The notes under the pieces are model-generated. The model had not been told where the DNA came from, did no database searches, and saw nothing but the letters and a program-made list of their open reading frames with translations. DNA of 64,000 nt from Magnolia sinica. Taxonomy: Eukaryota; Streptophyta; Magnoliopsida; Magnoliales; Magnoliaceae. The stretch covers positions 70,023,501 through 70,087,500 of the forward strand of contig NC_080590.1 in assembly GCF_029962835.1 (NCBI RefSeq), given 5' to 3'. Each line of letters begins with the position of its first letter. Position 1 is the stretch's first letter. Shown one piece after another: positions 6,265 to 63,531 of the stretch. The position numbers were made by a program, and so were the translations under genes.

Positions 6265-6270
6265 GAAGCG

Positions 6271-7322: not shown

Positions 7323-7559
7323 TCAATCCACTTCCAAGACCAAACAATGCATACAACGCTTGCTCATAGTAGAGGAAATCCCCGTAGCGGTAGTAAGCAT
7401 CACTCCTTGCATAGAAACAGTTCTCAAACCCAAACGCCTAACTGCTGCATAAGATATAAGAGAAGTAGTGGACCCTGTATCCACCAACATAGAAATGAGA
7501 ATACCTTCAATGTGCGCTGTCACCTTGAAGGATCTCGACACCAAGTCAAACATAGGCAC
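7323..7559 (-). pseudogene. Gypsy A aspartic protease
   Basis: Short frame with the retropepsin active site V-D-T-G-S-T-T-S (catalytic Asp codon at 7479-7481), preceded by residues F-D-L-V. It is the processing protease of the Gag-Pol precursor. Its frame differs from the RT frame, with which it overlaps around 7323-7356, so at least one frameshift separates them; a TGA or TAG at 7579 separates it from Gag. Confidence 0.85.
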
Positions 7560-7580
7560 TTCAGCTGCGAGCGTATGAAC

Positions 7581-11220: not shown

Positions 11221-11234
11221 TGCTCTGATACCAA
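11221..11234 (-). promoter_or_regulatory. Primer-binding site, tRNA-iMet type (gypsy A)
   Basis: The plus strand reads TGCTCTGATACCAA, the complement of TTGGTATCAGAGCA. It lies two bases inside the LTR end at 11237 and fixes the element's direction as minus. Confidence 0.92.
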
Positions 11235-21612: not shown

Positions 21613-21660
21613 TCCTCGACGTTATACACATAAGAGCTTGCTGGACATTTTAAAGGCTAT

Positions 21661-26553: not shown

Positions 26554-28871
26554 TGAAAGTGCCCTAGTTTGTCAATTAGCGTGAGCGTTAAGTCAGATAG
26601 ACAAAGGAGCCCCATGGGAAGATTGAACAAAGCGTCTGCCTCAACAAGATGTGTGCCTGAACTCGTCATAGGTAAATCTTAGCCTCACATCACATGTCCC
26701 AAAACATAAGGTAATTAAAACCCTTAATTGAACAAAACACCTTAGGGTTTTTGGTTTGAAAACTTTTTTTAAACTTCAGGAAAATCTTTAAGTTTTCTAT
26801 CTTTATCGATTTATCGACAAGTGGTTTGATAAAATTGAACACTGTTGTCGATGTCCTCGAAGCTCACTCGATATTATTGAAATGAGGACCAAAAATGTCC
26901 AACAACCACAAAGATATCTGGATTGAATTATCGATGGATCGATGGACTCATCGATATCATCAATGTTTGAATCTCGAGTCCATCGAGCCGACTCAATAAC
27001 ATCGACATCTGGCCTATTGTGTCTAAAGAACTGCTAAGGTAAAATCATATAATCCTCGATATATCGAAGAGCTCTTCGATATCATCGAAATTCAAATCTC
27101 GATGATATCGGAAACCCTTCGATGATATCGGATTAGGACACATTCATCCAGCAAGCTTTTTAGGATATTTTTTTTCTCGGAATGAGGGTCACTCGATAAA
27201 ATCGATATTCGAATCTTGATTATATCGAGGTATGGTCGATGTCATCGAAAGTGGACAACAAATGTCCAATAAGCTTATAGGAAAATTCCTTGGAATTATC
27301 GATGAATCGATACTGTCCTTTATATCATCAATATTCAAATTCCGATATTGAGTGATGCTCGATCATATCATATACCTGAAATATTTTCAAAGGCAAGTGC
27401 TCTCACATTTTCACATGTCGAGGAATCGAACCTCATGACGATGAAATCAGAGTTCGAAATCCGATGACATCAACACTCATTTAATTTTCTCGACCAGTTG
27501 GCAAAAAGTTTCAAAAGTGTTTAACAATTGAGTTCATGTCATCGAGTGGCCTGTCGATGCCATTGAGAGTATACGCTTAATGATATCGACCCTGCTCGAT
27601 GATATCGAACTCTGTCAAAAATATGACCGTTTTATATCCATTGGAACTTTTTGCCTATTTAATGAGAGTTTGCCCTTGGTTATTAGTAGAGCAGATAGAG
27701 AGCGCTTTTGTATGTTTAACCCTAGATCATATACCCTAAGCCTTTTCTCTCATGGGAGTTCATCCTCCAATTCACCCTCATCATTGACATTTAAGGATCT
27801 TGCAGCTACCACCTTAATGGCAAATCATTAAGCTGGGATGCCTTGAATGCGTAGATGATTGGAATCGCTCTATCTCCCTTATAGGAAAACATTTAATAGA
27901 GTAGGATTTCATCATAACCTTGACCCAACCTGTCACCATGTATTGGTACATCTTCTGAGTTGCGGTTCAAGGAAGCTAAAGATTCTTCGTCATCAAAGGA
28001 GGAGATCTTCATCAACGTGCTGAATGAGACTCATCTACTTATCTGTAAGTCATTAAAGTTTAGAAGACCCTTGAGATCATTCCTTCTGTAGGATTGGGTC
28101 TAAGGTGTTTCTCACCCCTTGCAAGTCCTCATAGGAGGCCTCCGACGGGAGTGTACGTGGGGGTGCTTTGTGTTGACTCTTGCTGTATGGAGAGCATAAA
28201 CTGGTTAGAGGTGAACTTGATTTAAACCCTCTGATTTGAAGTGAACCTGTTGTGAAACCTCCGTTAGGTTCCTTAAGTGGATCCTTGGCCTGTGTGGCCT
28301 AAAAGTCGGGTGTTGTGTGTTGACCCTTGCTCATGGGAGCAGAAACTGTGTCATGTAGACACGTTGTGTCAACCTAGGTGTAGGTTGTACTTGTTAGAGG
28401 TGAACCTGATTTAAAACCTCTGGTTTAAGGTGAACCTGTTGTGAAACCTCCTTTTGTGAGATCTAGTATACTCATGGGTTGAGTGCGTCCACCGAAAGTG
28501 GAGTAATAAGTAGTCAAACCACTATAAAAGTGACTATGTTTGAGATTACTATTGTCTTCTATTGTTTATGTGATTTCCTTAAATGCTTTTAGACCTGATT
28601 ATCTGAAATCACACCTCACACACACAGTCACATCCATCATAAACTGATTTACAACTTGTTATCTCTCAAATAGTTTTATGATTGGATCCTCTATTAGGCT
28701 TGGAAGCCTTTAGAGTTACTTTGAAGAAATCCTAATGCATGCATATTTTCTTAGGATAAGAATGATGGGATTTTAAAATTGTCGTAGAACATTAAAAAGT
28801 CTTATTCACCCTCCTCTAGGACATATTGGCATATTCCTACTTCAACTAAAGCAGTCATTGCCACAATTTCA
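26554..28871 (+). mobile_element. Element 2 5' LTR
   Basis: 2318 bp. U3 holds TCGAT palindromes at 26800-27600, then a TATA-like TATTTAAT at 27655-27662, and later the CCTAGGTGTAGG and GGTGAACCTGATTTAAAACC repeats (28200-28460). Differs from the 3' LTR by scattered substitutions and a roughly 30-bp indel (extra AGTGGATTGGGGAATGAAC block at about 39303 in the 3' copy). Confidence 0.9.
26800..27610. repeat. TCGAT palindrome array in element 2 U3
   Basis: Dense array of about 25 half or whole sites of the type TCGATATCATCGA or TCGATGATATCGA, spaced 15-40 bp, upstream of the TATA-like box. The 3' LTR repeats it at 38310-39120. Confidence 0.85.
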
Positions 28872-28941: not shown

Positions 28942-30112
28942 ATGGCCAAAGGAGAGGGCTCATCAGTCACTAGACCTCCAGTATTTGATGGATCAAATTA
29001 TGCATATTGGAAGGCTAGAATGCATTACTTTCTGAGATCTCTAGATCATGATGTTTGGAACATTGTGGAAATAGGATATGTACCACCAACTGATCAAATA
29101 GTACTTGAAAATGGCACAAATATTGCCAAACTAAAATTTAAAGAAATATGGACAGCATTCGATAAAGAAAAACAAACATCTGAAGCTAAAGCTATGAATG
29201 CTATCTACTGTGCTATCCCAAGAAGTTTTCAATCAAATCAGTATGTCTGGGACGACCAAAGAAGCATGGGACTTATTAGAAACAACCCATGAAGGAACAA
29301 ACACTATGAAGAGATCCAAACTGCAACTCCTAAAATCACAGTTTGAAAGTCTCAGAATGGAAGAGCATGAGACCTTCATGGAGTTTCCCACAAAACTAAA
29401 CATCATTTCCAACTCCATGGGTGGATTAGGTGAAAAAGTTTCGGTCCCAAAAATCTGTAGGAAAATATTAAGATCATTACCGAAACGGTTTAATCCTAAA
29501 GTAATAACCATTGAAGAGTGTAGAAACATAGATGAGATGAAGGTAGAAGAACTAGTAGGTTCCCTACAAACATTTGAACTACACTTCAAAACAATCCCTA
29601 AATCCAAAACTACCATTCTCAAAACTTCAAAGAATACAACAAATGAGGATATTGAAAGTGAAAGAGAAAATGAAGATGAGGAAGTGGCCTTGTTGACACA
29701 ACGGTTCAGAAAGTTCTTTCAGAAAAATCGTGGCCATCCATTTAAAGGAAGACAGGTGGACAACAAACAATTCACAGGTAAATCTAGTAAAAAGTCCAAG
29801 GAACCACAATGTTATACCCGTTAAAAGTTTAGACACCTGTCCACCAAATGCCCAAATAGGAAAACCAAAGGAAAAGCGATGGCATCCACATGGGATGACA
29901 CGGAAGAGTCTAACTCAGAATGTAGCGACTCAGAGAGCGATGGAGGCCAGAAATCTCTGAAAAATCTTATGGTCTCCACTGCCTCAACCATTCTCATCAA
30001 AATCGAGAACATTGAAGAACCGCTGGCCACTGAATCATTTCCATCAGATAATGAGGAAACTGAGAAAGAAGAAGAAGAAGAACAGGATAAACTAAAAGAT
30101 GCTTACAATTAA
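28942..30112 (+). pseudogene. gag: Copia Gag N-terminal part (element 2)
   Basis: ATG at 28942 (MAKGEGSSV) then the F-D-G-S-N-Y-A-Y-W-K-A-R-M block of DUF4219/UBN2 Gag. A frameshift lies between 29198 and 29292; from there a single frame runs to 31294, with stops at 29822, 30110 and 30178. The first knuckle (29810-29851) has lost its second Cys (Arg) and contains the stop at 29822. An acidic Glu-rich stretch follows. Homologous along its length to 414-1570. Confidence 0.88.
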
Positions 30113-30960
30113 CTCTACATTCATAGTATCAATATCCTTAAAAGACTTGGAATAACTGAAAATAAAAATGAATTGCTGTAAAAAGATCTGGATAAAACAT
30201 TGGAAATCAATACACATCTAATTAATGATTTACAGCAGTACCACTCAGATAATGATAGACTAGAAGGAATCAATATCTTCCCTAAATCTGAGTCTGAAAA
30301 ACTAAATAAACAGATTGAGCTATTAAAAGATAAGAACATGCTCCTTCAAAATGAAAATCACACACTCCTATTTGATTTAGAAAAATGTAAAAAATCTGCT
30401 AAGATAAATTATAAGTTTTCCCAGAGTGGTGAAAAATTAGAAAAACTCCTAGTGATGGGTAGACCCAGAAAAGACAAAAGTGGCTTAGGGTATGATAAGT
30501 CTAAAACAAAATCTGGAAATGTAGCACCAATAGCTGAAAAATCTGCTGCTTCAGGAAGTAAAACAAGAACTACTCCAGTTTGTCATTCAAGTGGTGATTC
30601 TGGTCATTATAAGTTTGAATGCATGTCACCTAGGAGGTCTCAACACAATTTTGGTCAAAATCACACTAGTAAATATAAACTAAACAGAAAAACAATACAA
30701 AATGTCAGGAGTCCATCTAGGAATATGGATATGAGAAATACACATCCATCACCACCCAGAATGACTAACAGAATGAAGGAATTATTGAATCAAGTGGCAG
30801 AATTAAATAAGAAAACAAATAAATGTGTGAGACAAGGAAACACGATTCAGTTGCCCAACTTGATTAAAGAAACTAAAACTACCACAATTAAAAATCCTGT
30901 CACAAAATGGGTAGTGAAAGAAAAGAAAAATTGCCTTGTTACTCAATCAAATCATATAAC
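30113..30960 (+). pseudogene. gag: Copia Gag C-terminal part, coiled coil and second knuckle (element 2)
   Basis: Same frame as the preceding part. Coiled-coil-like segment 30200-30440, the S-G-E-K-L-E-K-L-L block, then a second knuckle-like motif (30581-30622) in which the second Cys is Ser. Basic, Asn-rich tail to the protease. The tandem arrangement knuckle, acidic segment, coiled coil, knuckle is shared with element 1. Confidence 0.82.
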
Positions 30961-31294
30961 AGGCAATGATGCTAAGTGGTACCTGGATAGCGGATGCTCA
31001 AGACATGTCACATGTGACAAATCCCTTCTTTCAAATTATTTAGATATTAATGATGGGATAGTCACCTATGGAGATGGAAGCACCGCTGAAGTAATTGGAC
31101 AAGGAATGATCAAAGGAATAAATTCGCTCCAAAATGAGAATGCCTTTTACATAAAAGGATTGACGCATAATCTTCTGAGCATTTCTAAAATATGCAACAA
31201 TGAGCATGTGGTTACATTCAACAAACAGGAATATGAAATCCTAGACCTATCAGGTAAACCAGCAATGAAGGGTTATCGCACAAATAATCACTGA
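30961..31294 (+). pseudogene. Copia aspartic protease and pre-integrase start (element 2)
   Basis: Continues the Gag frame, so Gag and protease were one polyprotein. Catalytic motif L-D-S-G-C-S-R-H with the Asp codon at 30986, then the LTHNLLSISKICNN block. Stop at 31292. No integrase, RT or RNase H follows before the aORF at 32037; the truncation point corresponds to that of element 1. Confidence 0.87.
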
Positions 31295-31786: not shown

Positions 31787-32036
31787 GCTAACGAGCGGGA
31801 AAAATTAATTTTTTGACTTCCCTGCTCAATTTTTCTAGGATTTTCTTCCGTGGCTTTCATCATTTGTCTACCTTAGGCCATTTAAGGTGTCTTAAATCAG
31901 GTAATCTCTAACACATACTCTTGACTCCTCAAAGTATACTTCGTTGTGTTAGGGTCTTTCTAATTGAAAATCTCAAGTTAGTTCTTAAGATCCTCAAATT
32001 CTTCTTTCCTTTGACATTTCCTTCTGAGTTGTTTTA

Positions 32037-32517
32037 ATGAGTAAGGAGAAAGGAAAGTCTCCTGCCATCGAAGAGTCATCTCGGCCTATTAGAATGAAAT
32101 CCGTGGCTTCAAGAGAAAGAGGAAGGGCTCAGGTTCAATGATCCCCTACACGCCCATGGAGCTCCTCTACTCGGCAATCATCTCGTGGAGAAGCTCCGGC
32201 TGAAGCACCAACACCGCCACATACTGTTGTGGGTCCTCCTCCTCACATACTTAAAAAATACTCAGGGAGGCGCTTGGTGTATGAGCGTAGGGTTGACAAG
32301 GAATATATAAAATCCTACAATATAGAAGCTCTATTAGAGGTAATCGACTGGCTACCTCTTCTTGATTTCGGGGGAGTATGTCATATTGAGCAGACCTATC
32401 GCTTCTTTGCATATTGTCATTCTCCAACACTAGAACCACCATCCTTTACTATCCTAGTTGGAGATGATAGTGTTGAGATTACTATAGAATCCATCACTAG
32501 CATTCTTGATTTAACTT
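32037..32517 (+). pseudogene. aORF first part, interrupted by a solo LTR (element 2)
   Basis: ATG at 32037 opens MSKEKGKSPA, a basic start, with one in-frame TGA at 32139; the same frame continues through R-L-V-Y-E-R-R-V-D and the first half of the PTPD (D-W-L-P-L-L-D-F, then Y-R-F-F-A-Y-C) to about 32517. There a 3.9-kb solo LTR is inserted; the domain resumes at 36393. Homologous to 55800-56040 (minus strand, element 3). Confidence 0.75.
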
Positions 32518-35500
32518 TGTAAGGCTCGTATCCTAGTCCATACTATTCCGTCGACTCCCGCGATCCTTCCCGTCAAAGTCCGACAATCCGCGACCTATAA
32601 TCAATGTTTGAGCACGACCCTAAGTCGTATCCCATAGATTTGAGTCGGCTTAATCTGAGACTTGTACCATTGCAACCGCACCGTCACCGCGGTTCTAACG
32701 CCGCATCTTGCATACCGATCCGATACCAAAGTTAAAAGATGTGGGCCCGCATTTATTTGGAAGAAACACTACGCATTTGCAATCCCAAGAGAATCTCTAC
32801 AACATGTCCCATCAATTAAATACTCAAATCAATCAATCAATCAATGCTTTCTTTCTCCCCAAGTCAAGCAACCACCAAGTCAACTCTTTCTCACCCTCTC
32901 TCTTACACACCCATACATGTCAAGTACACTATCACCTCACCCATCACTCACCTCACATCCATCACCCATCACTCTCTCTCCTTACAACCCTCTCTCTCTC
33001 TCTCTCATTTCTCAAATCTCAAGCCAAATGTGGTGGACGTCCAAGCATTTCCTAAGTGAGAGAAAAGAGTGTGTTGTGTGTGGCCCATTCCCATCCCAAG
33101 ATCCACCATCCCAGCCCTTCATTTCTCATCATCTTCCATCAAAGAGAGGCACAAGGAGCTCGGCGTTCCATCAGACCAAGAAGATCGAACGGTGGGTGCT
33201 TTATAGGCTAGATTTTCATGTTTTATCAAAGGGCCAAGTGAGGCCTACTGATTGACGGTATGGATCTCATTTTGGACCCTAGGGGTGGCCGATGGCCCAC
33301 CTTGATTCTCATGGTCATTCCATGATGGGGCCATTCTCCATAGACCCCATCATGATGTTTAGTTTCTTTGCATGGATAGAGGTCATCTGGACCGTCCATT
33401 TTAGTGGAGAAGGAATCTCCACTGTTGAATTTTGATTTAATGGGCCCACATGTATTGGGACCCACTTGATGTATGATTGAATGCAAGGGAGGGCTCATAG
33501 TGGCGGAGCCCTCCATCACAGGTGTCCCTCTTTCTCTCTCTCTCTCTCCCTCTCTTTTTTCAATTTTTTTTCTTATGTGATGATGTGGCCGTGTGGCCCA
33601 CCTGGATGAACCCCATCTTGATGTATGTATTACCCATGCCATCCAACCTTTTGGTGGCCCACGTCTATAGGTGGGGCCCACCTCAAATGTATGTCTTATG
33701 CCCAAACCGTCCAGTGTCCAGGGACGCTAGACGTGAACTGAGAAAACAAAAATATTAGCTTATTTTAAAGCTTATTGGGTGGGCCACTCATACAGGCCCC
33801 ACCTTAACATATGGATCTCATCCACGCCGTCCATCTCATTTCCCAAATCATTTTAGGCGTTGAGCTGAAAAATGAAGCTGATCCAATTTTCTGGTGGGCC
33901 ATAACATAGCAAACAACGTTTTTACCGTTGAAATACCCCTTGACATTTCTATATACCAAAATATATCGGATAATGGGCTTAATGGGTCTATGTTGGGCCA
34001 TAGATACCAACAGTTGGGTTGGATTTTACCAATGTGGGCCCCACATGCGAAAAACCGTGAGAAGACACATTTTCAAAAAATATAAGCAGCAGCAGAACGC
34101 TGCTGCGTTTTGGTGGACGGACAGGCAGGGACCTACGTCCCAGCCATGGGCCCCACCGTGAGGTGTTTTGGGACATCAATATCGTGCATTTGGTGGGCCC
34201 CTTCTTGCAGTGGGCCCCCTCCAAAAATCAGCCATATTGGAAGCTCAGGTGGCCCACGTCATAGGAATCAGTTGGATTGAATGTCTACCCTTGAAACCCT
34301 TTTGGGTTGTCACAGAGGCTCTGGATATTATGAAATTTGTTTTTCTTATTCATCCTGGTCTGTGTGACCTTACCAACTGATTGGATGGAAAACAAACGTT
34401 ATGGTGGGCCCCATGTGGGACCCATAATGATGTATGCATTTTATTCACACCGTCCACAACATGGGACGGTGGAACCCACCATGGTGTATGTGTTCTATCC
34501 ACACCGTCCACAGCACTGGACGGTGGGACCACCCCACGTGTGGGGCTGCACCTAATGTGTGTGTGTGTGTATTATATTATATTGTATATATTATATATAT
34601 TATATATAGATTATATATTATATTATATAATATATACATGATGGTGGGCCTTCATGGGACCCACCATGTGTATGTGTTGCATCCAAACCATCCCAACCAT
34701 TTGGCAAGCTTGTCTTACAGGCTTGAGACTAAAAATAAGACAGATCTATAGTTCAAGTGGACCCCACTTTGGTATATATACATGAGGCCCATATGATTAG
34801 GCCCATCTTGATGTAGTTATGGCCCATCCGCTGAGGCCCACCTTGATATATATGAGACCCATGTTATGAGGCCCATTTGATGTATTAGAGGCCCATGGGT
34901 CGAGGCCCAATGGGATGTACATAAGGCCCATTGTAATATGATTCCACCGTGGTTTATGTGTTGATGTTTAAGGCGGGATATGCCTTGGGAGCAATGATGG
35001 TTTGACGCCCACATTGTAAGTACAATGTTGGTTAAATGTCCGCATTGTAACTCTCCTTAGGGCCCATTGATAGGCCCATACTTGTTGAGTATAGGCCGTC
35101 TAGGCCCATCTGCATTGTAAGGATAGTTCATTACTTTATAACATGCTTAGTATAATTCCATGACTCATGCCATACGCATCATATGTATGCTTGATATGAG
35201 TAGTGACTGATCATAGCATATGCCATTGGGCAGATTATTTATGGGACTCATTGATAGGAGTTACCCACATGAGTACGCGCGGGATTGCTGCATGACTATA
35301 CGGTGTGACTCATGCATCTCGCATATGTGTGACTTGATCATTGTAAGCCCTAGCGACATTAGGGCCGTAACTCCATAGGCACATCGTGGATGGCCGTATT
35401 GGATACCGAAAATACTTGGTTCTAGCACTGTAAGCACTTAGGATGTCCTTGGGTGAAAGTCCTAGAACCTTTTCGGTACCAGGAGTTACTCCAACGTCTA

Positions 35501-36392
35501 GACCAAGTGGATACACGAGCGCCCAAGTGCCGAATACTAGTAGGCCGCGTCTCCCACTGTTTCATGGTCGGTTGGAAGGGGGTGTGGCCTTATCCACCCG
35601 AGTGAGGGGGCTATAAGCTAGGCTGAATTTAACCAGCTCGTAAATGAGTCCGCTATCGACAAGCCGGGTAGGTATTGACAGACTACTGGTCAGGCGGATA
35701 GTGAGTTCTATTCCGCTTGCTGGGTTGTGCAGCTAGGGAGGCAGCAGTCAATGTGGAGTGTACTAGACCTCGGTGATATCCCAGAGAGGAACTGTACTGA
35801 TATGTATACTTGATGAGGACTGGCATGCTTGCTTTGCATTTTGCATATGACATTTGGCTATATAGGCCTTGCATCACATGGCCTTGGTATGGCCGATAGC
35901 ATTCATGCCTTACAACACATAGCTTTGGTACAGCTAATAGCATTCATAGACTTACCGCATATTTACACATTACTCTGATATTATACACTTGGCGCTTGCC
36001 ATGCGCATACACTTACACCACCCTCTAAGCTTTTGTAAGCTTATGCACGACCGTTGCTTGCAGGTGGCATTGGATCGCAGTAGCGCTGAGGCAGGAGCGC
36101 ACATCAGATTATTTTGGAGCCTTTTGATCACCTTGTATTTCCCTTTCCGCATTGCACTTAAAGTTTTTGATATAGTGGATATGTGGTGATGTTGTTTTGT
36201 GACTTAGTTATGCTTGTGGTTATGCTCCATTACAAAAAAAAATCATACTGAAAATCCTCCTTGTAGGATCCCAGGATCGGAATCTGGCATGAGAGTGCCG
36301 GGATCCGAGAATGGGGCACTACGAAAGCTGTCGGCGCTGGATTCGGCGATCAGGAATTTTGTGTGCCTGTTTTTCGAGTTTAGGGCGTGACA
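32518..36392 (+). mobile_element. Solo LTR, gypsy-like, 3.9 kb, inside the aORF
   Basis: Begins TGTAAGGCTCGTATCC and ends GGGCGTGACA, the TG...CA form of chromovirus LTRs, and no internal region or PBS follows. It splits the aORF of element 2. The flanks AACTT (32513-32517) and TATTG (36393-36397) do not give a clear target duplication, so the ends may be off by a few bases. The interior holds the GGCCCACC repeat region (33240-35110) and is otherwise non-coding. Its family is different from gypsy A, B and C. Confidence 0.6.
33240..35110. repeat. Degenerate GGCCCACC...CACACCGTCCA repeat region
   Basis: Repeated phrases of the type GTGGGCCCCACC, TGATGTATGT and CACACCGTCCA, for example at 33594, 33654, 33782, 34407, 34468 and 34644 (period about 62 bp for the last two well-kept neighbours). 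From 34760 to 35100 shorter GAGGCCCAT units of about 27-35 bp follow. A TG then TATA-rich microsatellite lies at 34556-34640. Confidence 0.75.
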
Positions 36393-37173
36393 TATTGTCT
36401 CTAGTTGGATTGTCTGACCTTGATCTTGAAAATCCTATTACTCGGTCTACAATTACAAAATTCCTGTGTCAGGGTCGAGATATCCCATGGTATCAAGAGA
36501 ATGCCTTAAAAGAAAAATATATGCACCCTCGATACTGTATCTTGCATGGGATATTCTGCTCAAATGCTTATCCTCGTGGACCCAATCGTGCTGATCTTAC
36601 CAGGTTCATGACCATGATTATGTACTACGTTGCCACTGGAGTCAAACTTTGTCTGCCTACCTTAATCCTTCACCAAAGAGCAAGTGTCATCCGCCAGTCC
36701 AGAGCCATATATTTGCCCTTTCCCCACATCATTCATGTAATTTGTAATACAATTGGTATTCCTCAAACAAATGATCTTGAACGTCCTGTCCAACACTTTA
36801 ACAAGGTTGATATATGAAAATTGGACCTTAAATTTCACGACTATGTGGAAGAGGAATCTGAGGAGGCTATTCATGAAGGTGGACAAACGGGAGAAGGCAC
36901 AACACCAACTCGTGAAGATCCTGTGGAGCCACAGCCTGCTCCAGATCCGAGTGGTTCGACTCCGACCCAACGTGTCAAGTTCACCAAGATCGGGTTGGTG
37001 CAACGCAGCGGGGAATGGCTCTGATAGAAGACAAGCTAAGGGGACATAATGCGAGGTTCTCAACCTTGGAGAGGATGATGTCTAGCATGCAGCAATCGGT
37101 GCAGCAATTGGTAGATCTGCTCACCTGCCATCGCGATGACATAACACCATCTTCCTCTGCTCCTTTGCCATAA
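36393..37173 (+). pseudogene. aORF second part with coiled-coil end (element 2)
   Basis: After the solo LTR the PTPD resumes: R-Y-C-I-L-H-G-I-F, N-A-Y-P-R-G-P-N-R, and K-L-C-L-P-T-L-I-L-H, a pattern equal to those at 3607 and 55500-55600. A TGA at 36815, then a Glu/Pro/Thr-rich linker in the same frame; the last 53 codons (37015-37173) are in another frame and encode the coiled coil around ARFSTLERMMSSMQQS. Together with 32037-32517 it would be about 420 codons. Function unknown. Confidence 0.75.
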
Positions 37174-37784: not shown

Positions 37785-38057
37785 AAAAAGGGGGAGAACA
37801 AAATCCACACCCCTGGACAAAATTATGTGTATCTGTGTATGAATGGTGGTGCAGGTGTTAGGGGGAGTAGCTGTAAAGAGATAGGGGGAGATTACTGTTA
37901 GGGGGAGTAGTTTTTGAATGAGTGTGTGCTCACTAGTGCTCACTAGATTACTTTGTAAAATTGTGTAAAGTTCATGTACACACAATTTAGGGTGTTAGTC
38001 TAGAAGTTGTTCTAGGGTGTTTTGGTGTTTTGTCACATAATTGACAAAGGGGGAGAT
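37785..38057 (+). promoter_or_regulatory. Multiple polypurine tracts (element 2)
   Basis: Five purine motifs of the GGGGGAG type: 37786-37798 (AAAAAGGGGGAGAA), 37859, 37881, 37899 and the functional one at 38045-38056 (AAAGGGGGAGA) directly before the LTR start. A polypurine tract primes plus-strand synthesis. Several copies before the 3' LTR are a known Sirevirus trait. A TTGTCACATAATTGACAAAG phrase precedes the last one. Confidence 0.85.
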
Positions 38058-40409
38058 TGAAAGTGCCCTCGTTTGTCAATTAGCGTGAGCGTTGAGTCAG
38101 CCAGACAAAGGAGCCCCATAGGAAGATTAATCAAAGCGTTTGCCTTAATAGGATGTGTGCCCAAACTCGTCACAGGTAAATCTTAGCCTCACATCCCATG
38201 TCCTAAAACACCAGGTAATTAAAACCCTTAATTGAACAAAACACCTTAGGGTTTTTGGTTAGAAAACTTTTTCGAACTTCAGGAAAATCTTTAAGTTTTC
38301 TATCTTTGTTGATTTGTCGACAAGTGGTTCGATAAAATTGAACACTGTTATCGATGTCCTCGAAGCTCACTCGATCTTATCGAAATGAGGACCAAAAATG
38401 TCTAGCAAACACAAAGATATCTGGACTGAATTATCGATGGATCAATGGACTCATCGATATCATCGATGTTTGAATCTCGAGTCCATCGAGCTGACTCGAT
38501 AACATCGACATTTAGCCTATTGTGTCTAAAGAACTGCTAAGGAAAAATCATATAATCCTCGATATATCGAAGAGCTCCTCGATATCATCGGAATTCAAAT
38601 CTCGATGATATCGAAAGCCCTTTGATGATATCGGATTAGGACACATTCATCCAACAAGTTTTTCAGGTTGTTTTTTTCTCGGATCGAGGGTCACTCGATA
38701 AAATCGATATTCAAATCTCAATTATATCGAGGCATGGTCAATGTCATCGAAAGTGGACAAAAACTGTCCAGGAAGCTTATAGGAAAATTCCTTGAAATTA
38801 TCGATGAATTGACACTGTCCTCATTATCATTGATATTCAAATTCCGATGATATCGAGTGATGCTCGATCATATCATATACCTGAAATATTTTCAAAGGCA
38901 AGTGCTCTCACATTTTCACATGTCGAGGAATCGAACCTCGTGTCGATGAAATTGAAGTTCAAAATCCGATGACATCAACACTCGTTCGATTTCCTTGACA
39001 AGTTTGCAAAAAATTTCAAAAGCATTTGACAGTTGAGTTCATGTCACTGAGCGGCCAGTCGATGCCATCGAAAGTATATGCTTGATGATATCGACCTTGC
39101 TCAATGATATCGAACTCTGTTAAAAATATGACTATTTTATATCCGTTGGAACTTTTTGCTTATTTAATGAGAGCTTGCCCTTAGTTGCTAGTAAAGAATA
39201 TAGAAAGTTCTTTTGTGTGTTTAACCTTAGATCATATACCCTAAGCCTTTTCTCTCATGGGACTTCATCCTCCAATCCACCCTCATCATTAACATTCAAT
39301 AGAGTGGATTGGGGAATGAACTTCTGCATTCAAGGATCTTGCAGCTAGCACCTTAATGGAAAATCATTAAGCTAGGATGCCTTGAATGCATAAATGATTG
39401 GAATCACTCTATCTCCCTTATAGGAAAACATTTAATCGAGTAGGATTCCATCATAAGCTTGACCCAACCTGTCGCCATGTATTAGTACATCTTCTGAGTT
39501 GCGGTTCAAGGGAGCTGAAGAATTTTTGTCATCAAAGGAGGGGATCTTCATCAACGTGTTGAATGGGGCTCATCTACTTATCTGTAAGTCATTAGAGTCC
39601 AGAGGACCCTTGAGATCATTCCTTCTTTAGGATTGGGTCTAAGGTGTTTCTCACCCCTTACAAGTCCTCATAGGAGGCCTCCGGCAGGAGTATATGTGGG
39701 GGTGCTTTGTGTTGACCCTTACTTTGTGGAGAGCATAAATTGGTTAGAGGTGAACCTGATTTAAAACCTCCGCTTTGAGGTGAACCTCTTGTGGAACCTC
39801 CGTTAGGTTCCTTGAGTGGATCCTTGGCCTGTGTAGCCAAAAAGTCAGGTGTTGTGTGTTGACCCTTGCTCATGGGAGGATAAACTGTGTCGTGTAGACA
39901 CGTTGTGTCAACCTAGGTGTAGGTTGTATGGGTTAGAGGTGAACCTAATTTAAAACCTCTGGTTTGAGGAGAACCTGTTGTGAAACCTCCTTTAGTGAGA
40001 TCCAGTACACTCAAGGGTTGAGTGTGTCCGCTAGAAGTGGAGTAGACAAGTAGTCGAACCACTATAAAAATGACTGTGTTTAAGATTGCTATTATATTCT
40101 ATTATTTGTGTGATTTCCTTAAATGCTTTTATACCTGATTATCTGAGATCACACCTCACACACACAGTCACATCCATCATAAACTGATTTGCATCTTGTT
40201 ATCTCTAAATAGTTTTATGATTGGATCGTCTATTAGGCTTGGAAGTCTTTAGAGTTACTCTGAAGAAATCCTAATGCATGCATATTTTCTTAGGATAAGA
40301 TGATGGGATTTTAAAATTGTCATAAAACATTAAAAAGTCCTATTGACCCCCCTCTAGGATATATTGGCATATTCCTACTTCAACTAAAGTGGTCATTACT
40401 GCAATTTCA
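38058..40409 (+). mobile_element. Element 2 3' LTR
   Basis: 2352 bp, near-identical layout to 26554-28871: TCGAT palindromes 38310-39120, TATA-like TATTTAAT at 39161-39168, R/U5 repeats 39700-39990. Ends AATTTCA at 40409 and is followed by gypsy B LTR sequence. Confidence 0.92.
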
Positions 40410-40914
40410 ATGTTTGGTCAGAAACTGATGGTCCAAAATCTTCAATTTCATGCGTAAGCAAATGGTCCAATTTACTTAAGTTTCATTACGTTTTGTAAAG
40501 ATATTTGTGTTTCTCACACACTTCACTCAGGGCTTAAGTTGTGCGTTTCTGGACAATATCTGGGCTCGATTCCTGTGACGGTTGTCAAACCCAGTAGAAC
40601 AGATATAACCCTATAGTTTTGCGGTCATCGGACTTTCGATGTGTGGTCCAGGTTCGATATGGAGTTTCAATGTACTCCTGAGAGCGACAGGCTCACGGGA
40701 TTTTCCCTAGGTTTTTAAGTAGTGTTGAGTTACCGATATTGATGGTTTTGGGTCTTGCCATTTGTGTAGATGGTGGTTCGAGCTAAATCCACTGATTAAT
40801 TTAGTTTAACACTTAATTAATTTTTATTTAAATTACTATAGAATACGGTCCTTAGGTCTTTCTGCCTGAGGTGGTACTCGAGTCTTTATACTGATTTTTT
40901 TCTGAGATGTTACA
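40410..40914 (-). mobile_element. Gypsy B 3' LTR, proximal part
   Basis: First 505 bp (element direction) of the gypsy B 3' LTR. Reverse complement begins TGTAACATCTCAG at 40914, like 21661 and 58287. Continues at 26553 beyond the copia insertion. Confidence 0.88.
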
Positions 40915-44211: not shown

Positions 44212-44297
44212 AGGTTTTAGGTCAAGCTTCGGTGCCTTGAGGTTAGAGGTAGAAGCACTACATTAGTTTGGGGTAATTCTTCGAATTGTGGCCTGCA

Positions 44298-54437: not shown

Positions 54438-54984
54438 ATCTCCCCCTTTGTCAAATTTGTGACAAAAACAAAATACGAGTCATGCAATAGATATTCCATA
54501 AGAACACATGCTCAATAAAGAATCATGCACCATTTAGTCGACAATTGATCAATAACATATGATCAATAAAGAATCACGCACCATCTGTGCACACCAAGTA
54601 ACTCTCCCCCTTAATCCATTACTCCCTTTAAACTAGGAGAAGGAAATTGTAAAAAAAAATAATTGTAATTAAACTCCTCATCCACATCATCATATCAAAT
54701 CCACATCATTATATCAAATCAAGCTTATCAAATTAAGCTTATTCCACACAACATTCTCCCCCTTTTTGTCACAACATGACAAAGGAAAGAAATGGATTAT
54801 AAATGATAAATGTAGATAATAAGAGAGTAATAAGATAGAAAAGAACATGATAAAAAGATTAATATCAGATAACTATCAAGTATCATGTCACAAGAGTTAA
54901 GTAGTTCAAGTAGTTATCATCTAAACTCACAGACGGTAAAGAGAGTTAAAAGAAATTAATACAGAACCAAAGCAAACGGAGCAA
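54438..54984 (-). promoter_or_regulatory. Element 3 3' untranslated region with three polypurine motifs
   Basis: Minus-strand GGGGGAG motifs at about 54438-54453 (next to the LTR), 54601-54613 and 54755-54768. The last is joined to a GTCATGTTGTGACAAAAAG phrase like that before the LTR of element 2. Otherwise no frame. Confidence 0.8.
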
Positions 54985-56112
54985 CTAGTCAGATCTTGAT
55001 GAAGGAACAGGAATAGATGGATCATTCTTATGTAAACCTCTATTGATGCGCCTCATATATTTGTGCATATATTTGAAATGCGATTGTTGGGTTACATGAA
55101 TCTGAGCCACATGTTCCTCAAGACAATGCAATCTCTCATCAAAATCAGAAGGCTAATAATCAAAATTAGCCTCAGAATCTAAATCTAGCTCATTAAACAA
55201 ATCATCCATATTTATATTTTCTTATGGCAAAGCATCACCTTCTTCAGCTTCTTCACCTCCTCCAACATCGCCGACAACTTAACCGGGTACCAGGTCCAGG
55301 TTCATCTTGCTAATATTTGAATTGTTGAAGGGACGAAGATTAATGGAACCTTCTCCAACAGGCATAGCTACGAAAGCATGGGTAGCTAGGGCAGTCATAA
55401 GATAAGCAAAAGGAATATTGCTATGACCGAGATGGAGACAAAACTAAATGATAAGATGATAGATAAGAGAAGGAAGACATATATGGATACTAGACACAAC
55501 AGAATGCATAATATGGGCCATAAAAGAAGTCATCTCAGTCTTGTTACCTGAGCGAGGATACACAATTGAAATGAAAATACAATGAAGGACCCTGTATCTG
55601 GGTAACATAAATTTAGAACTGAGCGCAATACTGTCGTTTCACTCCGCATCCATGTTGCAAAGAACTCTTGTAATCAAACGTTTTGCATTCTCAGAAGGTC
55701 TAGAGGTCAAAGTAGATATGGAAACTCCGTCATCAACAACAAGTATATTCGTGATAGAAGAAATCAAATGATGGTCTACTTCGATCGGACCTTCTCTAGT
55801 TGACACAAGAAATGTCAAATTCTCTAGAGAAAAGTCAGTAACACACGCATACATAGCCTGCGTAATGGACTGGTATGCCGAACCGCTCCAAGATAATATG
55901 TTCTCCCATCCTACAGCTTGAAGGAGGGGGACGATGTTGAAGCGTTCAATATGATCAACATTAACAACACGCTCAACAATGACATTCCTATGTCGGATAT
56001 CCCGTACATACTCGGGGTCCTCTTCGGGTGATCGAAGATGATGCATTGAAATGGGTATGGAACGAGATGAAGAGAGACCATGAACGGTTCTCTTCCTATT
56101 TCATCCTTCCAT
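54985..56112 (-). pseudogene. Additional ORF with plant transposon protein domain (element 3)
   Basis: About 375 codons between pol and the 3' LTR. The ATG at 56112 is followed by a frame change; from 56046 one frame runs to the TAG at 54985 with a handful of stops (the first at 55639). PTPD: R-N-V-I-V-E-R-V-V-N first half (55800-56000), then Y-R-V-L-H-C-I-F, I-V-Y-P-R-S-G-N-K and I-C-L-P-S-L-I-Y (55490-55620). An acidic linker and a coiled coil (H-C-L-E-E-H-V-A-Q-I-H) close it. It is where Sireviruses carry their env-like gene, but no membrane segment is seen. Confidence 0.75.
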
Positions 56113-56510: not shown

Positions 56511-58286
56511 CATATTACACATACCAAGATCAAATTTCAATTTTACAAACTTATTTTTGTCGAGCGGTTTTATGAATATGTCTACAAGTTGATTCTCGGT
56601 CTGAATATATTCCAATGAAATTGTCTTGTCTTCCACCAATTCACGAATATAATGATATCTAATGTCAATATGCTTGATTCATGAATGCTAAATTGGATTT
56701 TTAGAAATATTAATTGCGCTTAAATTGTCACAATATAAAACCATAGATTCTTGTGCAATTCCGTAATCGCTTAGCATTCTCTTCATCCACAAGCTGAGTG
56801 CATGCATTACCAGTATCAATATATTCAGGCTCAGCTGTGGAGAGCGATATGAAACTTTGTTTCTTACTTAGCCAAGAAACCAAACAGTTCTCGACATAGA
56901 AACAACCATTGCTGGTAGATTTACGATCATCAATGTTACCAGCCCAATCAACATCCATGTAACCAGCTAATTGCACACTACTATCATGTGGTACCAGAGA
57001 CCAAGATTAGTTGAACTAGCGGCATATCGCAAAATACGTTTAACAGCAATCACGTGAGACTCTTTAGGGTCCGATTGATATCTAGCACAAACTCCTATGC
57101 TAAAAGCAATATCAGGTCGGTTCGTAGTTAAATAAAGTAAACTACCTATCATACTATGATAAAACTTTGGATCCACACTCTTACCTGTTGAATCCTTAGA
57201 GAGTTTTAGAGTAGTACTCATTGGAGTATCAAAATTTTTCCTACACTCAAATTCGAACTTTTTAACTAAGTTCAAAGCATATTTTGTTTGTGAGATAAAG
57301 AATCCATCAGGGAGTTGTTTGACTTGCAACCCTAGGAAATAGTTTAGTTCTCCAACCATGCTCATTTAAAATTTAGTTTTCATAAGATCTGCAAACTCAA
57401 TAGTCATGTTAGCATAGGTAAATCCATAGATAATGTCATCAACATAGATTTGTATTATTAGTATATGATCATTATGTTTTTTAACAGATAATGTTTTATC
57501 TACACTCCCCATAATAAAGTAATGACTTAACAAGAATTTAATCAATTTCTTGTACCATGCCCTGGGAGCCTGTTTCAAACCATAGAGTGCCTTTTTCAGG
57601 CGATAGACATGACTAGCATGCTTAGGGTCTTTAAAACCCTCTGGTTGTTCAACGTACACTTCTTCATGCAAATCGCCGCTTAAGAACGCACTCTTTATAT
57701 CCATTTGATATATTTTGAATTTTTTAAAGCATGCAATGGATATAAATAGTCTGATTGATTCAAGACGAGCTACTAGGGTAAAGGTCTCATCATAATCAAT
57801 GCCTTCAATTTGAGTGTACCCTTGTACAACCAACCTAGCCTTGTTGTTAATAATATTACCAAGTTCATTAGACTTTTTTTTGAAAATCCATTTTTTTTAT
57901 AATGTGTTTATCTTTTAGTCTTGGAACTAAGTACTAAACATCATTTTTAACAAACTGATTGAGCTCTTCTTGCATTGCTACAATCCAGTTTTCGTCAATA
58001 AGGGCTTCTTTTATGTTAGTTGGTTCTATCTGAGATGTAAAGCACATGTAGTTGCATATATCCTATAGTTGTATACGAGTGTGCACACTAGTGAGAGGGT
58101 TTCCAAGGATTTGATTAGATGGATGGTCTTTAACTATCTGTAGTTCAGTGTTATTTTGACTAGATGAAGAGTCTGGTTTATCAAATAAAGGGACTTCATC
58201 ATTTTCTGAACTTGAGACAGATGTATTCAAGTGATCATCTATAACCACAGTAATAGACTCTTGAATTACACCAGTCCTCTTGTTAA
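56511..58286 (-). pseudogene. pol: Copia RT and RNase H (element 3)
   Basis: From the linker before RT (D-H-P-S-N-Q-I-L-G-N-P-L, 58063-58248) through RT with [24 protein letters not shown] and catalytic Y-V-D-D-I (Asp codons 57435-57440), the connection L-N-Y-F-L-G-L-Q-V, to RNase H with G-Y-M-D-V-D-W-A-G and S-L-S-T-A-E-P-E-Y (56728-56976) and the closing block E-Y-I-Q-T-E-N-Q-L-V-D-I-F near 56560. Stops near 57366 and 57834, and frame changes near 56970. It is the only copia RT in the window. Integrase, protease and Gag would lie beyond 58286, displaced by gypsy C. Confidence 0.92.
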
Positions 58287-61200
58287 TGTAACGTCTCGAA
58301 AAAATTCGTACAAAGACCCGAGTACCACCTCAAGCAGAAATCCTTAAGGACCAAATTCTTTAGGAATTAAACAAAAATTTATTTAAGTGCTGAACTAACT
58401 AATCGATGGATTTAGTTTGAACCACTATCTATATGAACTACAAGACCCAAAACCATTAAAATTGCTAGCTTAACACTACTTAAGAACCTAGGAGAAATCT
58501 CAAAATCCAGTTGCTCTCAGGAGCACATTGAAACTCCGTATCGGACCTGGACCGCGCGTTAAAAGTCTGATTACCACGAAACTATAAGGTTATGACCACC
58601 TTATTGGGCTTGACAATCATTACGGGAATCAAGCCCAAATAGTATCAAGAAATGCACAACTTGAGCCTTGAGCGAATTGTGTGAATAACGTGAATATCTT
58701 TACAAAATAAACTCAAACTTAAGTGAATTGGACCATTCACTTACAGGCGAAATTGAAAACTTCGAACCGTCAGATTCTGGCCAAACTAGACCCATGGATC
58801 AGGGAAATTTTCCTACTCTTATCCATATACTTGTGGCCCTGATCAAGTGGCAACAACCGTTGATCTAATACGGGTCCTCCATGGTCGATCCATTAATCCA
58901 ATCATAGAAAAATCATAACCTGGATTAGATCCATTGTCAGAGAAATTACTTTGTGACATAGATAGGTAATGGATCTCCAGATGAGCCCCATTCGTCAGAA
59001 ATAGTCACCCTTTGGCTATAACCCAAGTATACCATGGCCTGGGGCCATTGACATCACTTTTGGGCCTATTTAAAGACCTTAAACCACCCCCTCTCTCTTT
59101 CATATGAATTTATCAAACCCTAGGTGAGAGAAGAGAGAAAAGAGGAGGAAAGAGTGAGAGTTCAAGAGATCACTGTTGGGATTCACTCCCACCACATCAC
59201 GTACCGAATCCCCACCCCACCATCGCTACACCATCGATTCTAACTTCGATTTGGGTAATAAATCCTAACCCTAAACTTGTTTTAGAAGCCTAGATAGGGT
59301 AAGCAATGAAATATCTAGCCTATTTCAATGTTTAGGTACCGTTGCTCTGTATACGGGGACGTAGGATTCGAATCGAGTTTGAAATGAGAAATTCAACAAA
59401 AGGTGCGGACTATAAACGTTTAGGTTATGGTTTTCAAGGCTTTTAATGTCAGCGATGTTGTATGTTAGACTTGATTGTTGTCATATGATCTTAGTTACGA
59501 TGTATTCGATAAACTATACATGTGTGTGAACTATGTGAATATATAATGCATTTCATGTGTTTGTTGAAATGTTTGAATGAAAGTGCAATTATGAATTATT
59601 TTTTCCATGACTATTAATCTAGAATACATGTTTGTTGTATGTATGACAACTCCTTTATGAAAGGATCTGCCATAATATATGATATAACTAATTTAGTTTA
59701 TGTATGTAGTATTGTGTACTCTAAGTGTTTGATAAAATGCCTGAATGAGAAATTGTCTGATGAATCACTTTTAACAAGGGTGTTGAGATAGGATTCTTAA
59801 CTACCTTATCCACATTTATTATTTTCTTCATAAAATGTAAATTGCTGCTGTGTGATTTATGGATGAAATGCATATGTATAATAACTTGTTCCATGTGTTT
59901 GATAAAATGCTCAAATGGAAATTTTATTTAAATTGTTCATTAAATGCTGTTATGATTAACATATGTGACTACCTATTACATTTGAGTATGATTGGGACTA
60001 CTACGCAGTCCAAGCAATCAGTAACGGTTCCTAATTGAGTGGTGGAACTAGTTTCGCCACATTGGATACATTTGATGAATCCGATCCATACGGTGATTAT
60101 TGACAGTGGTTAGGCCACGTAGAGTGTGTATGCACTCCATGTCGATTTATTCAACGTGCGCTCGTACTAATCAAACTTGTCAAATAACCCGATTGGCCTA
60201 TTGTGTGTTTACCATGTATGGACACTACTGTTTGAATCTAAGGTACCGCTTACCAATGTAAAGCCCATTTTAACCATGGTACCAAGATTCGCTAAGACTC
60301 ATGAGCCAGGCATTGTGGTGTATGGGACACCGTGGTTGAGCTGTCGGCCTACGCTGGGGTAACAAGTCTCCCCGTAGTGACTAGCGAGCAACCCAAGCTC
60401 GTGAAGCGAATATAGCGGTGTATGGGACACCATATTCGAGCTGTCGGCCTACGTTCAGGTGACGAGCCTCCCCTAGTGACCTCGAGTATAATCTAGGCCT
60501 ACGTTGAAGTGACGAGCCTCCCCGTAGCAACCTCGAGTGTAAACTCTTAAACTTGCCTATCCACTGGTTTCATTAGGGGTGGTGCCCTACAACTTGCCTA
60601 TTCTATGTGATTAACTAGGATTGACGGCCATAGATGGATCCTTGTTTGGGTAAATGATAAAAAGGGAGGTACCTTAGCTTCTCGAATCTGCTGTATGAAT
60701 AAGCCTAATAAATTACTTTGCTAACGTCTAGGGAGTTTGCCATACACGATCTTTAGATTAAGTCGTTGAGGGAGTGCAAGAGAGGGCATGCTTATTACTA
60801 CATATCATTCCTACATTAACAAGAGTAATTAGGAAGTGATTGTTGTATTGCATTATCATTACTACTTGATTAAATTGATAACATGTTAACCTTTGCCTTA
60901 TAGTACCACTGAGTTGATCACTCACTCCCACTCTGGGACAATGTTTTAAAACACCAACCAGATTCTAATCTAGATGCAGATTATGGTGAGGCTTACGTGA
61001 TGGAGCTAGATTTCATTGACAAGGAGGAGGAGTTCTCTTACGTGCAGTTCTCTCACAATCATGTGTGGACCTAAAGCCGTGTCACCAGGGTTATAAGGAC
61101 ATTGGATTAGTTAAACATTTACATTTTGATATTTTTATGTATTTTAAAATAAAATATGTATATATTCAGCCCGATAGCATGTTCATACTCTGGAGGTTAT

Positions 61201-61412
61201 GAAACACATATATACTTTATATATCTATCTCAGTCTTCCGCTTGCGAAATTACATTAACTTTGGAGTACGATATGCTGATTTAGTGTAATCCCACTCATG
61301 TTTAATTCACTAATATGGAAAACATTTAAACATAATTATCTATGTTGCATAAGTGATGTGTTGAAACTCGGGAGTTGATCCTTACATGACCCTCAATTTT
61401 CAGGGCCTTACA
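58287..61412 (+). mobile_element. Gypsy C 5' LTR
   Basis: 3126 bp, TGTAACGTCTC to GGGCCTTACA. TATA-like TATTTAAA at 59067-59074 followed by the AAACCCTAGGTGAGAG leader. ~100-bp repeats at 60290-60550. Colinear with 21661-23936 and, reversed, with gypsy B. Confidence 0.92.
60290..60550. repeat. Gypsy LTR ~100-bp tandem repeat (gypsy C copy)
   Basis: Two full copies and one shortened copy (from 60498) of the unit with ATGGGACACC, GAGCTGTCGGCCTACG and GAGCCTCCCCGTAGTGAC phrases. Confidence 0.85.
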
Positions 61413-61415
61413 AGT

Positions 61416-61427
61416 TAGTATCAGAGC
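61416..61427 (+). promoter_or_regulatory. Primer-binding site, tRNA-iMet type (gypsy C)
   Basis: TAGTATCAGAGC, one base changed from the usual site, three bases after the LTR end. Confidence 0.88.
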
Positions 61428-62217: not shown

Positions 62218-63531
62218 ATGGCTCTTTTTAAGCTAGTTGCTACTATTTTCTCCCTCTCTACACTCCTTTCCCTTATGGGAAAGAAGAGGGCATCCGCGGA
62301 TGAAGTTGGGACTAACCGCCCAACTAACTCAAAGAAGAGGATGGGCGCTGAAGCAAGCACGAGCGCTGAGCGAGAGAGAAGATCAAAATGGGATCTCGAC
62401 CCGTGGATCCCCATCAAAAGATTGCTACCGGCGGGTGTAGAATTAGGTAGGTTCCGTAACTAAAAAGTTATATTCAAGGCTCATGTGGATGAAAGGCTTT
62501 TCGAGTTGTACCCAGTGATGAACATGCTCCTGGACAATGGATGGGGTCCCATATTTGAGGAAAATACCCATGTGAGTGGAGCAGTGCGTGCCTTCAATGC
62601 TCATATACGGGACCCACTACTGGAGCCGCTGCAGTTTACTATCCCTTTGGGAAGAGAGGAGGCCATAGTAAATGTAGACATGATAGCTCATATCATGGGT
62701 ATGGAGCATGGACTTGTACATGCTAGCGAGACAAACCTTGCCAGTGAACGAGAAAGGAATCGCCGCACCCATTTTCTTTGCGGCCAGCTTGAGTGGTGGA
62801 GGTAAGGAAATAGCCTTGCATTAACCAACATGACAAACGATTTCCACCTGCTCCATCACATATTTACATATAACGTATATCCCAAGTGGAGTAACTGTAC
62901 GGAGTGTACTCAGCTTATGGTGGATTTCTTATACAAAGTTGGTCAAGGAGATAAGCTATGTCTACCTACATTCATATTGTCTCATATTGTGGGTACTTCA
63001 CGATCTATACGGGGAGATGCCTCACTTCCATTCGATCAACTTATTTGTAAGATCGCTCGAAATTTTGGCTTCCAACTCCATATGGAGAACCATGCCCCAA
63101 TTCATATCATTAGTGACGCTACGCTCAACAATATGGGCATAGGCCCCAGGCAGCGACAAGTAAGGCTCGATGAGTATGGGGATGAGATAGAAGAAGAGGA
63201 AGAAAGTAGTGAAGAAGAGGAGGAAAATAAAATAGAGGAAGAAAGTGAGAAGGAAGGAAGTGTGGGGGAAGGCAGTGATGAAGAGGGAAGTGATGAGGAA
63301 GAGTAGGAAGAGGAAGAAGAGGAGGCCCAAGATCTGCATAGGGAGCCTCCTACTGCTACACATGACGACCGCCATGATCGGGCTGCCTTGGAAGCTCGCA
63401 TGGCCAAAATTGAGGAGGATCAGGCCTACCTAAAACAGAAATTCAAGAGGATGTATCACACTCTGAAGGCCCTCCTGTGCTGTATGCAGGACAAGGGTGC
63501 TCCTCAACCGTCACCAGAGTCAAATGACTAG
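62218..63531 (+). pseudogene. Additional ORF with plant transposon protein domain (gypsy C)
   Basis: Single frame of 437 codons with only three stops (62461, 62803, 63304) and no frameshift. Residues 1-19 are hydrophobic (MALFKLVATIFSLSTLLSL), residue 20 starts MGKKR and a basic/Ser-rich part; the PTPD spans about residues 80-310 with V-R-A-F-N-A-H-I-R-D, L-H-H-I-F-T-Y-N-V-Y-P-K-W-S-N and K-L-C-L-P-T-F-I-L; residues 322-375 are almost all Glu, Ser and Asp; residues 395-425 form a coiled coil ending in L-L-C-C-M-Q-D. Gypsy A has the same order. The gene is read from the LTR promoter and precedes gag. Biochemical role unknown. Confidence 0.82.

What the first reader, a model, noticed from the sequence alone, without database searches (positions are those of the whole stretch)
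62218..63531. The same domain has been taken up by both Ty3/gypsy and Ty1/copia elements, at different places
The plant transposon protein domain pattern (L-H-x-I-F ... V-Y-P-x ... C-L-P-x-x-I) followed by an acidic or charged linker and a short C-terminal coiled coil is found in gypsy A and C (5' of gag) and copia elements 1, 2 and 3 (after the Gag-Pol region). Five independent loci in 64 kb share not only the domain but the overall domain order. This points to transfer between superfamilies or repeated capture from one cellular or transposon source, and to a function useful to unrelated retrotransposons.
Basis: partly seen in the sequence, partly recalled or inferred. Interest (0 to 1): 0.9.

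Follow-up and report, generated by a model that had tools for sequence, protein, structure and literature searches.

The report
One extra gene in unrelated retrotransposons
In a genome that appears to be a Magnolia, two unrelated kinds of jumping element carry the same extra protein gene at opposite ends of their genomes, which suggests that plant retrotransposons swap or repeatedly pick up a useful accessory gene.

Summary
Five loci encode Pfam Transposase_32 (PF20167): gypsy A and C between 5' LTR and gag, and copia 1, 2 and 3 after the gag-pol region. Genome copies show that both placements recur: aORF-gag-RT-RH-INT in 6 of 6 gypsy contexts, copia RT then aORF in 16 of 20 copia-3-type contexts. 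Deep comparisons show protein-level constraint in both lineages; 19 recent copia-3-type copies do not. A copia type in which no RT or integrase was found keeps gag, the pol beta-barrel domain and this gene.

Two corrections. These are not five captures: the 10 sampled gypsy sequences form one clade, so one transfer or two captures suffices. The linker is strongly acidic only in gypsy. The domain is already known in an Athila (gypsy) element, and extra ORFs are known in Sireviruses and Tekay elements. New here, as far as my searches reach, is one gene family spanning Copia and Gypsy. Function is inferred only.

The parts
62218..63531 (+). gypsy C extra ORF (aORF), Transposase_32, 3 in-frame stops
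   Evidence: PF20167 E 3.3e-4; gypsy/copia profiles
58284..61412 (+). gypsy C 5' LTR (approximate ends)
   Evidence: repeat matches to the LTR-like copies at 21658-26555 and to 11662-13655
61416..61427 (+). gypsy C primer binding site, 1 mismatch to TGGTATCAGAGC
9131..10417 (-). gypsy A extra ORF, Transposase_32, 2 in-frame stops
   Evidence: PF20167 E 1.1e-15
11222..11233 (-). gypsy A primer binding site, exact
4966..8331 (-). gypsy A gag, protease, RT, RNase H, integrase (3' end missing)
   Evidence: Pfam matches
54988..56100 (-). copia 3 extra ORF, Transposase_32, first M at 56046, 5 in-frame stops
   Evidence: PF20167 E 4.9e-9
57219..57905 (-). copia 3 reverse transcriptase (RVT_2)
   Evidence: E 4.1e-60
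54440..54765 (-). three polypurine tracts after the copia 3 aORF; the last precedes an LTR-like start near 54437
26554..28871 (+). copia 2 5' LTR; PBS (exact) at 28874
29198..31201 (+). copia 2 gag and pol beta-barrel (Pol_BBD)
32034..32528 (+). N-terminal part of the copia 2 aORF
   Evidence: gypsy-based profiles, E 1.6e-7 and 8.1e-17
32521..36395 (.). 3.9 kb insert splitting the copia 2 aORF
   Evidence: L038 aligns to both sides without it; ends inspected
36396..37170 (+). C-terminal part of the copia 2 aORF with heptad tail
   Evidence: PF20167 E 7.4e-10 for the stop-free piece; frames
37787..38055 (+). polypurine tracts before the copia 2 3' LTR
38058..40411 (+). copia 2 3' LTR, 89% identical to the 5' LTR
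516..2688 (+). copia 1 gag and pol beta-barrel; PBS (1 mismatch) at 340
3556..3903 (+). copia 1 aORF remnant (C-terminal half of the domain)
   Evidence: PF20167 E 3.1e-6

Best explanation
The five ORFs are members of one accessory-gene family, built on the Transposase_32 domain, carried by two unrelated kinds of plant LTR retrotransposon: Sirevirus-like Ty1/copia elements (sense, after gag-pol, in the 'env-like' slot) and chromovirus-like Ty3/gypsy elements (sense, between 5' LTR and gag). SHOWN: homology over the whole domain, both placements in many copies, protein-level constraint in deep comparisons of both lineages, one gypsy clade among the rows sampled, and presence in copia copies in which no RT or integrase was found. 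INFERRED: one ancient move between superfamilies, or two captures from one pool. INFERRED mechanism, the most likely in my view: a non-enzymatic, self-associating accessory protein. A basic N-terminus targets or tethers it, the domain binds a host or element partner, the C-terminal helix makes it oligomeric, and it acts in the nucleus or particle on the element's own RNA or chromatin (silencing evasion, import or RNA handling), not as envelope or transposase. I put about 0.35 on that mechanism and about 0.95 on the one-family part; the confidence given is for the statement as a whole.
For: Homology. Placement: gypsy 6 of 6 contexts and 21 of 30 family loci with gag downstream; copia 16 of 20 with RT upstream, 2 of 30 family loci with Pol_BBD upstream and LTR sequence downstream. 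Constraint: gypsy A vs C identity by codon position 0.65/0.69/0.37, 8 gypsy-C-type copies dN/dS 0.36 in frame against 0.58 and 0.76 in other frames, copia L038 vs L021 0.70/0.78/0.43. Copia 1 and 2 gave no RT or integrase Pfam hit at E<=0.01 in the stretches scanned. Basic starts MGKKR in gypsy, MxK(D/E)KGK in copia 1, 2 and L038.
Against: Recent copia-3-type copies show no constraint: dN/dS 0.72 in frame, 0.45 and 0.55 in the other frames, 19 copies. No fold could be assigned and no solved relative was found, so binding and oligomerisation are guesses; the heptad signal is weak in most rows. The hydrophobic N-terminal segment of the gypsy versions would also fit a membrane role. Sirevirus and Tekay assignments rest on motifs, not on RT trees.
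Confidence: 0.5

Rival explanations
1. Two independent captures: each superfamily took the domain from a plant gene or DNA-transposon family of the same type, without element-to-element transfer.
For: Gypsy and copia rows are separated by long branches; the Pfam family is named a plant transposon protein; L066 and L067 carry the domain with no gag or RT match within about 2 kb either side.
Against: The N-terminal basic start and C-terminal tail as well as the domain are shared. No cellular copy was identified, but none could be searched for properly.
Confidence: 0.35
2. Envelope-like or membrane protein: the ORF works in cell-to-cell or membrane-bound steps, as proposed for Sirevirus and Athila env-like genes.
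For: The copia copies sit in the env-like slot; 6 of 8 gypsy rows examined showed a 20-residue window before MGKKR with mean hydropathy 1.72-2.74 (2 rows lacked the anchor motif), and in gypsy A vs C its second codon positions are 19 of 19 identical.
Against: In copia 2 and L038 a stop lies just before the basic start; no fusion-protein family hit in Pfam scans. No transmembrane predictor was run.
Confidence: 0.15
3. Passenger sequence without function, carried along because the elements multiplied.
For: The window copies I examined are broken, and recent copia-3-type copies look neutral.
Against: Codon-position bias in deep comparisons of gypsy and copia, in-frame dN/dS 0.36 in gypsy-C-type copies.
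Confidence: 0.07
4. A divergent plant mobile domain (PMD, PF10536).
For: The helix and beta-hairpin order of a low-confidence model recalled the PMD motif to me.
Against: Profile comparison with four PMD loci of the same genome: probability 0.3 over 23 columns, inside the range of 20 shuffled profiles (up to 0.42). The PMD profile had only four rows.
Confidence: 0.04

Closest known systems
Athila 3' aORF with Transposase_32 in sunflower (PMC11728184, passages read)
   Same: Same Pfam domain, in a Ty3/gypsy element, in an extra ORF
   Different: 3' of pol and in Athila, not 5' of gag in a chromodomain element, and not in Copia; sequences were not compared here
Tekay 5' aORFs (PMC11728184, passages read)
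   Same: Sense extra ORF upstream of gag in gypsy elements with a chromodomain
   Different: The paper found no similarity of the sunflower Tekay 5' aORF to known domains
Sirevirus env-like gene / SIRE eORF-3'F (PMC2829016 passages and section 20; PMC6317226 section 13)
   Different: Known ones are very divergent (19 groups in SIRE) and no link to a gypsy ORF is stated in the parts I read
Retand antisense TRP28 ORFs (PMC11963269, abstract and passages)
   Same: Accessory ORF of unknown function shared across a plant gypsy lineage
   Different: Antisense, other Pfam domain (PF04195); relation to PF20167 not tested
Rotifer ORF3 types shared between retroelement classes (PMC5408684, abstract and outline)
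   Same: Same accessory ORF in unrelated retroelements, read as gene sharing
   Different: Animals, enzymatic ORFs (GDSL esterase, DEDDy exonuclease), other element classes

Membership tests
Pfam Transposase_32 (PF20167) | Score above the curated 45-bit cut-off | tested here: met
   Window: gypsy A 58.4 bits met, the other four loci below it. Other copies: copia L038 68.6 and L065 50.5 bits above, L066 43.4 below
Pfam Transposase_32 (PF20167) | Match along the whole profile | tested here: met
   Gypsy A 3-172, copia 3 3-174, L038 3-177 of 177; copia 1 and the copia 2 C-half are partial
Ty1/copia | Copia-type gag and RT | tested here: met
   Copia 3 RVT_2 4.1e-60; copia 1 and 2 Retrotran_gag_2 and Pol_BBD, no RT
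Sirevirus | Multiple polypurine tracts before the 3' LTR, mostly after the ENV gene | tested here: met
   Tracts at 37787, 37881 and 38046 (copia 2) and 54756, 54604 and 54440 (copia 3); two of the six have one mismatch; 9 matches in the window against 4.1 expected
Sirevirus | RT phylogeny | not tested
   No reference RT set was at hand
Chromovirus (Ty3/gypsy) | Chromodomain after integrase | tested here: inconclusive
   Gypsy C continuation: PF00385 E 3.7e-4, 20.8 bits, below the 25.1 cut-off, right after SH3_Tf2-1; gypsy A is truncated there
Chromovirus (Ty3/gypsy) | tRNA-Met primer site | tested here: met
   TGGTATCAGAGC exact in gypsy A, 1 mismatch in gypsy C; that this word fits tRNA-Met is recalled
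Tekay clade | RT/INT phylogeny | not tested
   Suggested only by the 5' aORF and the chromodomain-like end
ATHILA ORF-1 (PF03078) | Profile match | tested here: inconclusive
   No PF03078 hit for the ORFs in Pfam scans; none in the genome, but the control was silent too
Plant mobile domain (PF10536) | Profile relation | tested here: not met
   hhalign probability 0.3, within shuffles
Env-like protein | Transmembrane segment | tested here: inconclusive
   Hydrophobic N-terminal segment in 6 of 8 gypsy rows by simple hydropathy; no predictor run

The most novel reading that the evidence does not exclude
The 'env-like' ORF of at least some Sireviruses, the 5' ORF of some chromoviruses and the 3' ORF of some Athila elements are one accessory gene. 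It crossed between Copia and Gypsy and is kept by selection wherever it sits in the element, even in Copia elements that have lost polymerase and integrase: a general plant retrotransposon accessory factor, comparable in role to a viral counter-defence gene.
Probability: 0.42. Interest if true: 0.78.

Novelty: new variant of a known kind. Interest (0 to 1): 0.6.

Why it matters
Extra ORFs of plant LTR retrotransposons are mostly described lineage by lineage, and a screen of 121 angiosperm genomes reported all 15 non-canonical domains in Gypsy-type elements and no domain gain in plant Copia-type elements, while noting that env-like genes exist in both (PMC9289625, passages). One constrained protein family on both sides argues for a shared function and makes it testable: whatever it does must suit two different integrases, two different Gags and two different positions. 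It may also give a sequence handle on the long-disputed Sirevirus 'envelope'.

Tried and rejected
Chance or low-complexity similarity: rejected. Relation to the plant mobile domain: tested, not supported. Fold-based identification: both AlphaFold2 models too poor (mean pLDDT 43.8 and 55.4), Foldseek best E 3.1; PDB sequence search empty. Wider sampling: no confirmed relative of P0002, P0003 or P0007 in IMG/VR, none of P0002 in prokaryote genomes, none in phage records for the gypsy C DNA. A genome search with the copia 2 aORF did not complete, so that type's copy number is unknown.

Rows dropped: gypsy_L003 and gypsy_L022 before the trees, P0007 (long branch). The first dN/dS run had four loci on the wrong strand and was replaced. 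In one search, L045 (the window itself) and L046 were left out of the dN/dS set. In one search, L015 and L018 gave no hydropathy value because MGKKR was not found, and the L065 tail word was not found.

Full report
SETTING. The window is G000:C18:70023501-70087500 of a 1.84 Gb genome. Contig C1 has the same length, 141,926,363 bases, as the longest contig of protein P0001, named Magnolia sinica, so I take the genome to be that species (inference).

THE FIVE LOCI. A pattern scan placed the motifs at about 3625, 36542 and 62851 (+) and 9760 and 55587 (-). Pfam finds Transposase_32 at each. Gypsy A (58.4 bits) passes the curated 45-bit cut-off; the other four window copies have E-values from 7e-10 to 3e-4 but lower scores. 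A profile from gypsy A and C alone recovers all three copia loci and a piece of copia 2 at about 32034-32528; a copia-built profile recovers both gypsy loci. Of 2160 shuffled decoys two gave E<1, both with one of the four profiles. Built as separate profiles, the two sides align at probability 100, E 9.6e-42, 231 columns, 19% identity, against at most 1.16 in 20 column-shuffled controls.

ELEMENT ANATOMY. Copia 2 is framed by LTRs 89% identical, with gag and the pol beta-barrel region; no RT or integrase matched at E<=0.01. Its aORF is cut by a 3.9 kb insert at 32521-36395 that copy L038 lacks. Copia 1 has gag, beta-barrel and a decayed aORF in 1-4802 and seems to hold gypsy A as a nested insertion (matching LTR pieces at 3-324 and 14958-15284; inference). 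Copia 3 has RT, the aORF, then three polypurine tracts; the last precedes an LTR-like start with the same flanking words as in copia 2. Multiple tracts clustered near the 3' LTR and after the ENV gene are described as a Sirevirus feature (PMC2829016, passages). Gypsy A and C share an LTR family, the primer site, about 800 nt of leader and then the aORF. Gypsy C's gag, RT, RNase H and integrase follow outside the window, and five further copies have the same order: 6 of 6. A weak chromodomain follows SH3_Tf2-1 in gypsy C.

COPIES IN THE GENOME. The family search gave 13,875 first-look candidates; 150 were scored and all 150 pass the cut-off. Of the 30 best loci, 21 show gag after the aORF, 5 show RT with no gag seen, 2 are gypsy-type with neither seen, and 2 (L021, L038) are copia-type with the pol beta-barrel before the aORF and LTR sequence after it. 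Of 20 copia-3-type loci, two of them the window's own copy and a near duplicate, 16 show copia RT upstream, one the beta-barrel region, three neither. A search with P0002 gave 130 scored matches of 22,151 candidates, of which I read three. L065 is copia-like by its polypurine junction; L066 and L067 carry long aORFs in an unassigned repeat.

SELECTION. Gypsy A against C: identity by codon position 0.65, 0.69, 0.37, synonymous sites saturated. Eight gypsy-C-type copies: dN/dS 0.36 in frame, 0.58 and 0.76 in the other frames; domain 0.32, C-terminal helix 0.20, acidic linker 0.96. Copia L038 against L021, both with the beta-barrel directly before the aORF: 0.70, 0.78, 0.43. Against this, 19 copia-3-type copies give 0.72 in frame and 0.45 and 0.55 in the other frames, and L066 against L067 is uninformative (pS 0.04, pN 0.03). 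Saturated or decayed copies make these ratios rough.

TREE. The 10 gypsy rows form one clade in both trees (100/99, 100/100). Copia rows group weakly in the first (83/81). In the second, L065 joins the gypsy side with deep support of only 37/88, and copia as one clade has AU p 0.042. The trees are unrooted. One move between superfamilies, or two captures, is the minimum; direction is open. The wide spread among copia rows would fit copia to gypsy, a weak argument.

PROTEIN. Shared order: basic start, the domain of about 180 residues, a linker, a C-terminal helix-like tail and a proline-containing end. The linker is 47-64% acidic in gypsy, 36-44% in the copia 3 copies, 16-20% in the copia-2 type (crude cut). 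Six of eight gypsy rows examined show about 20 hydrophobic residues before MGKKR; the other two lacked the anchor word. Heptad scores are suggestive only. No fold was assigned, and the plant mobile domain is not a relative by profile.

WHAT IS KNOWN. A search for Transposase_32 or PF20167 returned one relevant paper of four, which reports the domain in an Athila 3' aORF. The phrase 'putative plant transposon' gave two GWAS papers, not opened. Searches on Sirevirus with env-like, Athila or Tekay listed 16 entries; of these I opened four (PMC2829016, PMC6317226, PMC5408684, PMC11728184), in parts. None of the listed titles or abstract starts, nor the parts read, states an extra gene shared by plant Copia and Gypsy; the rotifer paper (abstract) reports such sharing between other retroelement classes. 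A screen of 121 genomes states no domain gain in plant Copia elements (PMC9289625, passages), and a survey sorts SIRE eORFs into 19 groups with little similarity (PMC6317226, section 13). Only open-licence papers were searchable and no supplements were read, so the novelty claim is limited.

VERDICT. It is a new variant of a known kind: a known domain and known ORF slots, in a combination that links two superfamilies. The mechanism remains an inference.

Noticed in passing
window about 55000-63500; G000:C18:69988870-69997427: Copia 3 and gypsy C aORFs both have 97% copies about 90 kb away in swapped order and strand, 6.1 kb apart as in the window: probably an inverted segmental duplication.
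   Followed up: partly
window 32521-36395: 3.9 kb insert inside the copia 2 aORF; first 30 bases match the reverse complement of the last 30 at only 11 places, so no clear terminal inverted repeat; type unknown.
   Followed up: partly
L019, L023, L027, L034, L035: Gypsy A-type copies in which RT follows the aORF within about 450-620 nt and no gag match was seen: possibly a gag-less derivative family.
   Followed up: no
L066, L067: Long aORF in a repeat 93% alike over 3.7 kb, with tandem repeats of about 136 bp at one end and no gag or RT match in the 5 kb fetched; element type unknown.
   Followed up: partly
window about 40916-45849 (-): Gypsy B has a fragment of the same LTR family and a related integrase end (74% over 867 bp) to gypsy A, but no Transposase_32 ORF was found near its gag.
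   Followed up: partly
window 10361-10417 (-) and 62218-62274 (+): First 19 codons of the gypsy aORFs are hydrophobic, with second codon positions 19 of 19 and third positions 26% identical between A and C; in copia 2 and L038 a stop lies just before the basic start.
   Followed up: partly
G000: Pfam PMD (PF10536) is also abundant: 120 matches from 5432 first-look candidates, 117 scored.
   Followed up: no
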